Shown here one piece after another: positions 3,401 through 57,500 of a DNA stretch of 64,000 nucleotides. Made by a program: the position numbers and the translations under genes. The notes beneath the pieces were generated by a model. It made no database searches. It had not been told where the DNA came from and saw only the letters and a program-made list of their open reading frames with translations. Every line of letters starts with the position of its first letter. Position 1 is the first letter of the stretch. This stretch comes from Liolophura sinensis. Taxonomy: Eukaryota > Mollusca > Polyplacophora > Chitonida > Chitonidae. Location: assembly GCF_032854445.1 (NCBI RefSeq), contig NC_088307.1, forward strand, positions 18,240,017 through 18,304,016. The letters are read 5' to 3'.

Positions 3401-6400
3401 GACCTACCTCTTGACGACATGTCAATACCAAAATCCAGATCTTTGAATATCAGCGGCATTCCAGGATAGTTAAAAGACACACCTGGAAAAGCAGAATTCA
3501 AATATCTATGTACTGTTTAGTGTAAATTCGTTACATTTCAAATTATATTATAAAATACACAAAAATCAAACGGAAACAAATTTTTTTGCTGTGTTGTCAT
3601 GGGCTCGTTTTTTTTTGCCCGTCTTGAGCTGCAGGGCATAATGCTTGTAAGCTTTCATTTCGACACACACACACACGTGAAAATAATGGCAAATTAAACG
3701 ACTGAAAAAAGCTTGACACACGCACTCAGGCAATGTTTGAACTCTCCATTATTCAGTTTTTGTGCAGTAGAGCACTTATTATACAATACGACCAGCTGAA
3801 TGCCGAGCCATGGAGAATGAAACAATGTATCTAGTGTTGACGCTGCGGGACTGACAGTTAGGCCCAACAACAACAACGCAAGTTTTAGCAGACACTTGTA
3901 CCCTCACTGGCGGAGTTTCATTGTTTGAAGAACTAGCCTTTTGTTTTTTTCCAATCTTGATGTTTCTAACACTTTTTCAGGCTTTTTGATCAGGTAATTA
4001 TTCTTTTATTTAATTGGTGTTTTACGCCTTACTCAGAAATATTTTATGAAGCCAACATCATGGTGGCATGAAACCTTTTGGCCAGGTAAATATGTCTTGA
4101 ACAGGAATAAATTGCAGGGACAGTGCACATTTCCCCAAAATTAGAGACCAGTTTCATTTTCATTTTGAGACCCTCCAAAAATAGGGAAGAAAATATAGTT
4201 TTTTCATCTGTCAATAAAGACTTGAATGGCGTCTTAAGTGAAAATATATATAACAGGAGATGACTTGTGCCTTACCATGAGCTCCCAAAATGGGTGGACT
4301 CAGTTCTGGGGGGTCAGGGAAAGTAAACTTGACGACGTATTCCCGTGGTCGCTGCAGAAGTTCTGTAGGTTTATCATCTTCATCCATCATGCTCTGCTTT
4401 GTTTTGTTCTTCTGCTGTTTTCTCGTCAGAGCCTCTTTCTGTTTGGCTTCCTGTAACCATGGCAACAAAATGATGTCATGCAAATGCTTTCTGTGATAAT
4501 CCTTTACAATAAAATTTTCAAAGAACAGCTTTGAAGTGAAAAAAAAACAAAAAAACCTGCAAGTCTCAATTAGGGCATTAATTTTGGGTGATACTGAAAT
4601 AGAAAGCCTTCTTTCAATGCCGTCACTGGCTGTGGCATTTTAAAAGACATTTTCTACTCTCTCCATGACAGACTTTTTGAATATATCCATTCTAGCTGTC
4701 AAAAAACACGATGTCGAAAAGTGATGTAATCTGTGTTAGCCAATAAACACTCTGCATGAGAAAATTACCTTGGGACAAACGAGTACAAATTTTCATTGGT
4801 CGAACTGGAGGTGTGCCTTTATTAATTATTTTCACAGGTTGAAATAAAACTCCATCAGCAATACCTGGCATTCCCCATCGCCCACAAGTGAACCATAAAG
4901 AGTCATCGTCCCTAAGACCCCATCTCCATCAATAAATTTGGTAAAATTTGGCCTGTATTCACCTTTCCCCATGGTTCATTCACAGTTTTTCAATTTGTTA
5001 TTCTGGATTACATTAATTAGCCATCTATATCAGATTTGTGAGCTCATCCAACAAATGACAGAGGGCATTTACCACCAACCGACGATATTTACTTCCATGG
5101 CAAATAACAAAGAACGATTTAACAACAAGAATTTAATTACAGCAGCTTTGGCAGATTTTCCCGATGCTTTCAATTCTTTCAGTCGCTTCTCCTGTTTGTC
5201 ATATTCCTTCTGCTGTTCCTTCCTCTTCTGCACCAACATCTTCTTGAATTTAGCTTCAACAGACAAAACATAAGATCCTCAGCACCAGTGCTGTCCTCCC
5301 CAATGTATGATCCGTGGATTGACTGATTACTGGATCAATTCTTGCCTTATGTCATAATCCTGAACTTTATTCCTCAACTACACAATGTCTGAGCTATCTA
5401 AATAAGTTACTCATCATAACTACCTCTGAGTACAAACAGTTACTCACAATAACTGCCTGTAAGTACAGTCACTCACAATAACTGCCTGTGAGTACAAACA
5501 GTTACTCACAATAATACCTCTGCATTCAAACAGTTACTCACAATAATTGTCTCTGAGTACTAATAGTTACTCACAATAACTGCCTCTGCATTCAAACAGT
5601 TACTCACAATAATTGCCTCTGCATTCAAACAGTTACTCACAATAATTTCCTCTGAGTACTAATAGTTACTCACAATAATTGCCTCTGCATTCAAACAGTT
5701 ACTCACAATAATTGCCTGAGTACTAATAGTTACTCACAATAATTGCCTCTGTATTCAAACAGTTACTCACAAAAATTGCCTCTGAGTACTAATAGTTACT
5801 CACAATAATTGCCTCTGAGTACTAATAGTTACTCACAATAATTGCCTCTGCATTCAAACAGTTACTCACAAAAATTGCCTCTGAGTACTAATAGTTACTC
5901 ACAATAATTGCCTCTGTATTCAAACAGCTTCTGCTGATCCAGATGAATAATATCTGTACAGACGTTGTCAAGGAAGCTCTGGTCATGAGACACAACAAGC
6001 AGAGTTTTCTTCCATTGCTGGAGATAGCTGAAACAGGCAGCACAGATACAAACTTGTTTTATGCCACACAAAGCAAAGCAAGGGTTTCTCACTATAAATT
6101 ACAGTATAATAAAAGAACACATCCACTCATACATACTCAACTATGACTGTTCCACCCAAAGCACTTCCTTGGATTAATGGCTGGACTGACTTATGTTTAA
6201 TATTTTAGTCAAGAATTCTTTACTTCTATGACAGCTGTCAGGTTTTTGAATGGAGTACACTGAAGTGCCTGGAGTATTTATTTCTTTATTTGATTTGGTG
6301 TTTTATGTCGTATTCAAGAATATTTCACTTATATGATGGAAGCCAGCATTATGGTGGGAGGAAACCGTGCAGAGCCTGGGGGAAACCCACGACCATCTGC

Positions 6401-54500: not shown

Positions 54501-57500
54501 AAGTTTCTGTAAACGATGCAATTTAAGTCTTTTCCATAACTCCTTTGGAAGCAAACCTCAGGAGTTTGGGATTTCCACTGTCATTATATTCGTCATTTAA
54601 TAATAAACTTTTGAAAAGATTTTTTTGGTCACGTGAAAGAGGAACCTTCTCTTTCCTGATTTAATATTACTTTGATATGAATTTTTGAACATACCTTTCC
54701 GGTCTTCAAGGAGCCAGTGTTCTCGACAACAACATATCGTCCGTCGGGCGCAGTCTCGGAGAATCCGACTGGACCACGAGATGACCTTTGAACCGTGACT
54801 CTTCCGGTGGCCTCTCCGACGTTTACAGGTCCTGCTTATAAGGAAGAAATAGAACTAATTCAGCAAAAGGTTGGTGATAGTCGCCTCAGTTCCCAACAGT
54901 TAGAGAATTCATATACTGTGGAATGGAATTTTGAAAGTAGACAAAGTTAAAACACCTAAGACAACTAGAAAAGACAAAAAGAAATAGAAAAAAAGCAGTG
55001 GGCAATTCTATTCTGACTTAATTGCTCAGCAACTGATCCAAAGTTTCAACGTACCGGAAGTCAGTGGGTTTCTCGCAGAGTCTCCTTGACCCAATGACAG
55101 CTTCACCACATCCTTGAGGTTTAGTCTGTAACAACAACAAAAATACAACATTGGTATCTCGTGGATATCTAAACATCGTTGACTTCATGCTTGTTAATTC
55201 GTATCCTCATCACTCTTCCGGTTTAACTGACTTCTCTCTAAATTCTTGCGGAAACTTGTGACCACCACATACAACATATGTCTCATTTATTCCCTACTTT
55301 AAGATCCCAAGAATTAACCTCACCCCAGATCCTAAAAAAAAGAGGCCACTTTCACAAAAACTTCGTAAATCAGGTCTCGGGTAGACTTCAAAAATGACGT
55401 TGGCTATAAGTTACAGGCATTCTATACCTTCATAAAAGCCCCATATGCATACTCACGCAGAGCCACATATTCTTACACTGACCCCCAATATCCTTAGACC
55501 CCATAAACTCACACAGGCCTCCATATCCTCATACAGACCCCATATCCTTATACAGCTCTCATGTCGTCACACACACCCCAATATCCTCATACTGATCCTC
55601 ATATCATCACAGAGACCCCATGTCCTAACACAGACCCTGATATCCTCACATAGACCTTGGCATCATCACACAGACCGCTCTATCTTCACACCGACCCCTA
55701 TATCTTCACACAGAATTCCATATCCTCACACAGACCCGCTGATCCTCACATAGACCCGCTGATCCTCACACAGTCCTTGATATCCTCACAAAGACCCCTA
55801 TATCCTCCCTACACTCCTCACCTGTTCTCCTCCACGTCTAGCAGTTTCCTGTAAGCCGCGATCTCCAGCTCCAGGGTGAGCTTGGCGTCCATCAGAGCCT
55901 GGATCTCCTGCAGGACTGATTCCAGTTCCTGCTGTAGGTGTTGGATCTGGTCCTTCAGGTGCTTTGTCTCGGCGTCATGCATCGTGTCCTTATCCTCCAT
56001 CTGCTGGTTCAGACTCTTCACCTGTGACTCTAGGTACGCGTTCTGTAACAGGCATGGAGTCACGCATTGGATACAACATTATGTATTCAGGAATTTCGAA
56101 TCAGGCCCTTTAATTGAGCTGGGAATAACCCAGGATGGCGTTATATCGGAAAAGGTGGAGACATAACGAGATAAGAATCCTGTACATTGGTAGAGAAGGT
56201 TTTTACTTCTTTTGACAAATGAAATGTTGAGTCTTACAATGAATGCTACACAAAATTGTCCAATTGTTTTAGTGTAAAGAAAGTTTAAACTGGCATGGAG
56301 TCCCAAAACGGACGTTGCATTATGTTATTCAACGAGAAAACGTACACCATTGCAGTCATAGGTTTGCCTGTTTGACTGATTGTTGATTGATGGGGATTCA
56401 CTCACCCTGGCCTGGAGCTCAGACAGTTTAGATGTCAGGTCCATAATCTTAGATTTATTCCTTTTGCTCTCCTCCTTGGTCAAGTCGTTGTCACGTGACG
56501 GTGCGCTGTTCATCTGGCCCGCTCGGATTTCAAGTATCTGATCAGAAAAAAAATAATAAAATAAAATAAAATAAAAAATCAAACATAGGAATAAATGACT
56601 GTAAATGTGTTTTTCTTCTGATGAAGTCATTACGTTGATACACATGTGTTTGAATGACACTTTTACAATTTATCCAGGTGACTTTGCACCATTATCAGGG
56701 GTACTGCAAATCGCACTTCAAGAAACGGGATGGTATACCTGTGAATATGACGTATCAAATAATCTTCATTCAACAAAGTCACAACAAGTCACAAACTGCA
56801 TGATTATTTCTTTTCTTTTGCATTTTTTATTTTCGCTTTGTACGAAATTAGTTAAGAAATTGAACTCGGACATATGTAAGAAATGTATGAAAGCATTAAT
56901 TACGAAGTTACGTAATTGGAAGGAAAAGAACAATAAGTTCAACCGCCATCGTGGACAGCACTGTGGATTATTCTACCACCTCTGGCTGCGGAAAGTTTAG
57001 CGGTCCGGTTGCCGAGGCATTGCAGCCGGACAAAAGGTGGCGGAACCTAAATAAACTAAGACACGCAGAGCCTATTCAATGTGGCTGACTGCTTATTTAG
57101 AAAGTTTTCCACAGACCGCTAAACTTTACCAGTTCCATAATATTTAAAACCTTACACATACCTGGTTGTTGTATTTGGAGTCCATGTCATTGCGCATCTG
57201 GTCAAGTCGGTTGTCGTACTCAGCCTGTATTTCCCGAATAGCCTTGGACAACTCGCCCTTCCAGTATTCCCGGAGATCTCCACTGTCGTCACGGTTAGCC
57301 AGTGCCTGAAGGTCTCGGATTTCCTGATTAAACAAAGATGTAATTGACTGGTGTGTTCATTCTGCTGGTGTTTGTACACCATTTCACAACTCAACATTTT
57401 GACCTATGTGGATCAATATACGATAGGCGTAATTCCTGATTGAAGTCGTTGATTCTCACAGAAATTCCGGCATAAAGAATAGTAAATGATATTCAAATAG

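What the first reader, a model, noticed from the sequence alone, without database searches (positions are those of the whole stretch)
5400..55821. Recurrent tandem arrays seeded by 5' splice sites in four genes
Four introns in four different genes (ABCF1, SURF1, PFDN6, intermediate filament) contain minisatellites whose units copy the adjacent splice donor. In two of them the units also copy conserved coding bases. The unit sizes (33, 39, about 44, about 20 bp) and sequences are unrelated, so this is not one repeat family spreading. It looks like a repeated process acting at exon-intron junctions. Possible causes are replication slippage or R-loop repair at donors, or selection for arrays of decoy U1 sites that change splicing or elongation. 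I do not know of a described class like this.
Basis: partly seen in the sequence, partly recalled or inferred. Interest (0 to 1): 0.9.

Follow-up and report, generated by a model that had tools for sequence, protein, structure and literature searches.

The report
Splice-donor minisatellites in a chiton
In a chiton (a mollusc), several genes carry strings of DNA repeats that are copies of the end of an exon plus its splice signal, a kind of structure already named "mirages" in amphioxus, and in the small set of genes examined they sit at exon ends more often than chance placement predicts.

Summary
In ABCF1, SURF1 and PFDN6 the exon-intron junction recurs in its own intron with alignment scores (40, 23, 22 of 40) above all 1000 shuffles. 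The intermediate-filament array lies 14 nt from its donor but is not a demonstrable copy (p 0.42-0.47).

The window is from the chiton Liolophura. Three CCT genes elsewhere in the genome gave three more cases. In all, 6 of 37 donors and 0 of 37 acceptors score 20 or more in their own intron; 0 of 1332 cross-comparisons on either side. Of 13 intronic arrays 5 overlap the donor and a sixth (PFDN6) is split from it; 1.3-1.6 are expected by random placement (P 0.0005-0.001 for six, 0.0045-0.009 for five; small, partly post hoc sample).

The class is described: amphioxus "mirages" (PMC3087553). Best explanation: short tandem duplications across donors, grown as ordinary minisatellites and tolerated because the exon-attached donor keeps working. 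Decoy selection finds no support; donor-motif seeding is not supported. Possibly new: a mollusc, the frequency, a donor-only bias.

The parts
5903..6027 (-). ABCF1 exon ending ...LFEYRGNY with donor ATT|GTGAGT; the authentic copy of the array unit
   Evidence: PDB 5zxd match; continuous reading frame when joined
5405..5927 (-). ABCF1 minisatellite, 33-bp units = 25 nt exon + 8 nt donor with an in-frame TAA; confirmed donor copy
   Evidence: TRF; junction score 40 of 40; 12 copies with a donor score at least equal to the real one
27929..28001 (-). SURF1 exon ending ...NPETRKGGQ with donor CAG|GTACGA
   Evidence: Joined exons read through as SURF1; acceptor/donor scan
24970..27933 (-). SURF1 minisatellite, 39-bp units, filling nearly the whole intron; starts 3 nt inside the exon; confirmed donor copy
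   Evidence: TRF; junction score 23, best copy 43 of 43 identical (3 exon + 40 intron nt); 64 GT sites in the intron scoring at least as high as the real donor
36741..36865 (+). PFDN6 exon ending ...RIEYITSEV with donor AGT|GTAAGT
   Evidence: Deposited Liolophura PFDN6 protein 100% identical across this junction
37069..37588 (+). PFDN6 minisatellite, about 44-bp units carrying about 25 nt of exon end plus donor; starts 203 nt after the donor, with a tRNA/SINE-like stretch in between; confirmed donor copy by sequence, not by overlap
   Evidence: TRF; junction score 22, above all 1000 shuffles; sequence
55822..56042 (-). Intermediate-filament exon ending ...KLLDVEENR with donor CAG|GTGAGG
   Evidence: Vimentin match; splice scan
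55452..55807 (-). Intermediate-filament intron minisatellite, about 20-bp units, 14 nt after the donor; NOT a demonstrable donor copy
   Evidence: Junction score 11, p 0.42, 0.47; no GT site within 1 bit of the real donor
11203..11535 (-). ABCF1 array 39 nt after the donor at 11572; some units read AAAAAG|GTAAGG (stronger than the real donor) but are not copies of it
6879..7050 (-). ABCF1 array ending 14 nt before the acceptor of the exon at 6862-6779; not a copy of the acceptor
   Evidence: acceptor score 8, p 0.955

Best explanation
These are mirage-type minisatellites. Step 1 (inferred): a short tandem duplication (about 33-109 bp), by slippage or template switching during replication or repair, happened to span an exon's 3' end and its donor. 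Step 2 (shown as a result, mechanism inferred): it grew and homogenised like any minisatellite in a genome in which such arrays take up about 9-11% of the sequence examined. Step 3 (inferred, with indirect support): the arrays survive because all extra copies lie downstream of the first donor, so pairing of the first donor with the intact upstream exon still gives the normal mRNA, whereas duplications across acceptors or inside exons would change the mRNA and are removed. The extra donors are passengers, not regulatory decoys.
For: Own junction copied (score 20 or more) at 6 of 37 donors and 0 of 37 acceptors; no junction matches another intron at that level (0 of 1332 each), so the units come from their own junction and not from a spreading family. 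Best CCT5 copy: 93 exon + 40 intron nt, 133 of 133 identical. The ABCF1 exon part encodes protein conserved in 5zxd (YRGNY), so the exon is the source. Arrays are common: 54 in 200 kb sampled (18,589 bp), 20 in the window (7,272 bp). Deposited CCT5 and PFDN6 proteins join from the first donor. Using a later GT site within 1 bit of the real donor would bring in a stop codon at 12 of 12 in ABCF1, 63 of 64 in SURF1, 7 of 7 in PFDN6, 3 of 3 in CCT5 and 1 of 1 in CCT3.1. Donor columns in the units drift much like the rest. Amphioxus mirages did not disturb splicing by RT-PCR (PMC3087553 section 16).
Against: Passive placement alone predicts 1.3-1.6 donor hits, not 6 or 5, so tolerance may not be the whole story. 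CCT3 intron 3 is an exception to 'copies are poisonous': 6 of its 10 equal-strength decoys precede any stop. No RNA data were available; the use of the first donor rests on deposited gene models for two genes. Six further donors (filament genes) show no copies and CCT7 has no arrays, so the frequency varies between genes.
Confidence: 0.72

Rival explanations
1. A mutational process aimed at donors: exon ends are hot spots for tandem duplication (R-loops, replication-transcription conflict or U1-related events), so donor arrays are born more often than others.
For: 6 of 13 intronic arrays carry the donor against 1.3-1.6 expected, P 0.0005-0.0011; CCT set alone 3 of 4, P 0.0075-0.012; window set alone 3 of 9, P 0.027-0.040. 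Leaving out PFDN6, whose array is split from its donor: 5 of 13, P 0.0045-0.009. Donor:acceptor 6:0, one-sided sign test 0.016.
Against: Donor motifs are not clearly enriched in array units: at 6 bits or more 14 of 61 arrays against 15.9 in shuffles and 12 reversed; only at 8 bits or more is it 6 against 5.2 and 3. Genome-wide, paired AGGTAAGT at minisatellite spacing gives 886 matches against 704 for the reversed motif, but 17 against 16 separate clusters on the first 54.7 Mb of contig C1 (my count from the capped listings). Without PFDN6 the window set alone is not unusual (2 of 9, P 0.16-0.22). Tolerance also predicts the donor/acceptor asymmetry.
Confidence: 0.2
2. Selected decoy donors: arrays of U1-binding sites are kept because they tune splicing or elongation.
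For: Many copies score at least as high as the real donor: 91 of 124 aligned units in six arrays; an ABCF1 array that is not a copy also holds strong donors.
Against: Donor columns are not consistently conserved: cyclic shifts at least as conserved as the donor number 7/33, 15/39, 13/44, 109/109, 48/60, 11/66. Most decoys would bring in stop codons. Array lengths and sequences are unrelated between genes.
Confidence: 0.05
3. Chance: the genome is so full of minisatellites and the introns so short that some arrays fall on donors.
For: About 9-11% of examined sequence is tandem array; the window's set alone is only marginally unlikely (3 of 9, P 0.027-0.040; 2 of 9 without PFDN6, P 0.16-0.22); donor motifs not clearly enriched in general.
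Against: Combined P 0.0005-0.0011 for six, 0.0045-0.009 for five, and 6:0 against acceptors.
Confidence: 0.2
4. A mobile, intron-generating repeat (introner-like) spreading between genes.
For: Several genes are affected in one genome.
Against: 0 of 1332 cross-matches between one gene's donor junction and the other introns; unit sizes and sequences differ. A genome-wide search with an array unit did not complete.
Confidence: 0.02

Closest known systems
Amphioxus 'mirages' (Adh3; globins BflGb6 and BflGb9; PGBD5; [quoted passage not shown] PMC3902484 one passage; Canestro 2002, doi 10.1093/nar/gkf386, not read, known from a reference list)
   Same: Units copy exon end plus splice signal, start at the authentic junction, unit sizes tens to about 160 bp, no apparent disturbance of the deposited gene product
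   Different: Different phylum (Mollusca); here only donor-side cases (6 against 0 acceptors) although amphioxus has both; frequency estimated here over a set of introns; polymorphism and somatic instability not tested here
[quoted passage not shown] only the title seen, in reference lists; not held; that it is the human 6-16/G1P3 gene is recalled)
   Same: A minisatellite whose units supply splice donors
   Different: By its title the copies there provide donors to the transcript; here no use of downstream copies is shown
Intron gain by tandem duplication (e.g. PMC4974935, PMC2891723, search listing only; human tandem repeats at exon-intron boundaries, PMC2812944, passages read)
   Same: Tandem duplication across exon sequence creates extra splice sites
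   Different: Those make new introns or change exons; here existing introns merely lengthen

Membership tests
Mirages (exon-intron boundary minisatellites) | Tandem units span an exon-intron boundary and contain both coding bases and a splice signal | tested here: met
   ABCF1, SURF1 (3 coding nt only), PFDN6 (array now split from the junction), CCT5, CCT3 twice; filament array not met
Mirages (exon-intron boundary minisatellites) | Regular splicing is not disturbed | tested here: inconclusive
   Deposited proteins of CCT5 and PFDN6 join from the first donor, 100% identical to my partial models; no RNA seen
Mirages (exon-intron boundary minisatellites) | Both 5' and 3' intron boundaries can be duplicated | tested here: not met
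   Donors 6 of 37, acceptors 0 of 37 at score 20 or more. PMC3087553 says boundaries 'can undergo' duplication, so it is not required for each locus
Mirages (exon-intron boundary minisatellites) | Length polymorphism and somatic instability | not testable with these tools
   One assembly; no reads
Mirages (exon-intron boundary minisatellites) | Concerted evolution among units | tested here: inconclusive
   Units differ little from their consensus in CCT3.3, and moderately in ABCF1 and SURF1; no second species or haplotype
Introner-like mobile introns | The same sequence at many unrelated positions | tested here: not met
   0 of 1332 cross-matches among the 37 introns; not searched genome-wide

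The most novel reading that the evidence does not exclude
In chitons, exon 3' ends are true hot spots for the birth of minisatellites, so that a large share of intronic arrays genome-wide are donor-seeded, giving very many natural competitions among up to tens of near-identical 5' splice sites in which the exon-proximal one must always win (or, as in CCT3 intron 3, where in-frame copies could be spliced in).
Probability: 0.25. Interest if true: 0.75.

Novelty: new member of a known kind. Interest (0 to 1): 0.5.

Why it matters
Splice-site mirages were described in cephalochordates. Finding them in a mollusc, in 6 of the 13 intronic arrays examined and only on the donor side, suggests a recurrent outcome of minisatellite birth in repeat-rich genomes. 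Each such gene is a natural test of how the spliceosome picks one donor among several to tens of equal copies, and a possible source of new introns or in-frame length variation. It also makes a concrete question testable: is the donor bias mutation or tolerance?

Tried and rejected
Intermediate-filament array as a donor copy: not supported by the junction test. Donor-motif enrichment in array units: not found. Genome-wide paired-motif count: 886 against 704 matches, but 17 against 16 clusters on C1 up to 54.7 Mb, so no clear excess (single octamers occur 12 against 9 times in 264 kb); the test is insensitive because few donors carry the exact octamer. Conservation of donor columns: none consistent (only units at least 60% identical to the authentic unit were counted). 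Filament first exons as further cases: 0 of 6 donors, one of the six being the window's own gene; two opposite-strand rows printed in that call were ignored. A first look for donor-plus-open-frame at sample array edges gave too many chance frames to use. The Pfam read-through scan of two minus-strand stretches in one frame each gave only SURF1 plus two hits that I judge to lie in repeats. A 200-bp duplication with a donor motif in L001 was looked at and dropped as probably transposon-like, by eye. Gene-model errors: the CCT7.1 acceptor index was off by one and its intron was dropped; it was restored, and the CCT7.5 acceptor moved. One CCT7 intron (2971-4038 of L029) may hide a small extra exon, judged from human CCT7 by recall. 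Acceptor IF.a scores 13, above its 200 shuffles and p 0.002; it holds no array and I did not count it.

Selection to tell: the three CCT loci were chosen after seeing the PF00118 table, whose open-frame column I had taken as a possible sign of arrays; of the three, CCT7 proved to have no array. The placement model uses unit lengths that I set by hand or TRF's best period, and the donor-score table was written from recall.

Not done: PF00225 and PF00227 searches; pattern CAGGTGAG; genome search with the ABCF1 array. Papers listed but not opened include a Conus gene-structure paper with the words minisatellites and splice sites (PMC3862624).
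Full report
What was claimed.

Source. The window is G000:C13:18240017-18304016 of a 609,464,459-base, 632-contig assembly. An LRR gene in the window is 100% identical over 97% of the query to a protein named for Liolophura sinensis, a chiton; the deposited Liolophura CCT5 lies on a contig of 96,433,062 bases, the length of C1. The published Liolophura japonica assembly has 609.5 Mb in 632 scaffolds (PMC11068029, passages). 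That paper's main text has no occurrence of words beginning 'tandem', 'intron' or 'minisatellite'.

Gene models. ABCF1 lies on the minus strand with 13 modelled exons; 11 align to the solved ABCF1 chain 5zxd, several weakly, and boundaries come from splice-signal scanning; joined, they read through as one protein. SURF1 (four exons) and PFDN6 (two exons) also read through. The filament gene was placed by vimentin and Pfam matches.

Junction test. For each intron I aligned the 40-nt junction (20 exon, 20 intron) to the rest of the same intron and compared with dinucleotide-preserving shuffles. In the 18 window introns (17,054 bp) three donors stand out: ABCF1.g 40, SURF1.a 23, PFDN6.a 22; the filament donor scores 11, p 0.42. 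So three of the four claimed cases are real copies and the fourth is not shown. The PFDN6 array starts 203 nt after its donor, with a tRNA/SINE-like stretch between; it is a copy by sequence, not by overlap.

Outside the window. A PF00118 search of the genome listed 50 matches. CCT5 has a 109-bp unit holding about 93 nt of exon plus donor; the best copy is 133 of 133 identical. CCT3 has two such arrays (60 and 66 bp units) in four introns. Over 37 introns (32,791 bp) the final counts at score 20 or more are: donors in their own intron 6 of 37, acceptors 0 of 37; donors against other introns 0 of 1332, acceptors 0 of 1332. The filament acceptor IF.a scores 13 (p 0.002) but its intron holds no array. 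Six first-exon donors of filament genes (one of them the window's own) gave 0 of 6; only about 1.5 kb downstream was seen there.

Is it more than chance? Minisatellites are everywhere in what I sampled: 54 arrays (18,589 bp) in 200 kb, 20 (7,272 bp) in the window (unit at least 10 bp, at least 2 copies; L001 contains 2,500 N). In the 36 introns TRF finds 13 arrays (unit at least 14 bp); the 37th lies in a locus without any. With a founder unit placed uniformly in the array-free intron plus one unit at each end, 1.30 donor hits are expected and 6 counted, P 0.0005; allowing the donor side only, 1.56, P 0.0011. With TRF's own longer periods the figures are 1.7 and 0.0023. Five of the six overlap the donor directly; for five, P is 0.0045-0.009. 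The window alone gives 3 of 9 (P 0.027-0.040), the CCT set alone 3 of 4 (P 0.0075-0.012); without PFDN6 the window set is 2 of 9, P 0.16-0.22.

Results against a donor-seeking process. Donor-like motifs are not clearly enriched in array units: at 6 bits or more, 14 of 61 arrays against 15.9 in shuffles and 12 with the unit reversed; outside the window 9 of 45 against 12.2 and 9; at 8 bits or more 6 of 61 against 5.2 and 3. Genome-wide, AGGTAAGT paired at 12-42 bp gives 886 matches against 704 for the reversed motif, but counted as separate clusters on C1 up to 54.7 Mb it is 17 against 16 (my count from the listings, capped at 100 places each). So the sequence of the donor does not appear to seed arrays; if there is a bias, it concerns the place.

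Do the copies do anything? Across six arrays 115 of 124 aligned units keep the GT and 91 of 124 score at least as high as the real donor, but the donor columns are not systematically more conserved than the others; in CCT5 they are the least conserved stretch. Use of a later GT site within 1 bit of the real donor would bring in a stop codon for 12 of 12 in ABCF1, 63 of 64 in SURF1, 7 of 7 in PFDN6, 3 of 3 in CCT5 and 1 of 1 in CCT3.1, but in CCT3.3 six of ten precede any stop. Deposited CCT5 and PFDN6 proteins are 100% identical to partial models that use the first donor. This fits passengers tolerated downstream of a working donor.

Known class. [quoted passage not shown] units 10-160 bp; both boundaries; RT-PCR suggested no disturbed splicing; copy number differs between haplotypes and, at Adh3, even somatically; mechanism stated as unclear (PMC3087553, section 16 read). 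PGBD5 and troponin C of lancelet are further cases (PMC3902484, one passage). [quoted passage not shown] My searches for a report in molluscs or on a genome scale showed none in their listings, several of which were capped (for example 15 of 1,159), I opened only a few of the listed papers, and the library lacks most subscription papers.

Verdict. Real, recurrent, and of a known kind. What may be new is the phylum, the frequency, and the donor-only bias, whose cause (mutation or tolerance) stays open.

Noticed in passing
window 37981-38045: A 26-27-bp unit, 2.4 copies, begins at the end of the PFDN6 coding sequence and repeats its last codons with the stop codon (GCCAGATCTTAG): a boundary duplication at a stop codon instead of a splice site.
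   Followed up: partly
window 11203-11535: ABCF1 array 39 nt after a donor; some units read AAAAAG|GTAAGG, a stronger donor than the real one (11.3 against 9.0 bits), though not copied from it.
   Followed up: partly
window 6879-7050: ABCF1 array with TTTAACAG in its units, ending 14 nt before an acceptor; not a copy of it.
   Followed up: partly
window 36930-37075: tRNA/SINE-like stretch between the PFDN6 exon copy and its array, so an element may have inserted between the first and second unit after the array formed (sequence; SINE identity recalled, not tested).
   Followed up: no
L031 (CCT3), reverse strand 3028-3460: The 66-bp units keep the exon frame open for 432 nt past the donor with equal-strength donors (6 of 10 before a stop), so splicing could add 22-residue repeats.
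   Followed up: partly
L021 and L022 (G000:C1:65004428 and 65009038): Two filament-domain genes 4.6 kb apart with identical scores and the whole domain in one open frame, unlike the multi-exon gene of the window.
   Followed up: no
L011:5166-9357: A 54-bp array of about 78 copies over 4.2 kb.
   Followed up: no
window 17104-17175: tRNA-Glu (CTC) gene between SURF1 and ABCF1.
   Followed up: no
window 40967-41838: 18-bp array of about 47 units in a stretch for which I assigned no gene.
   Followed up: no
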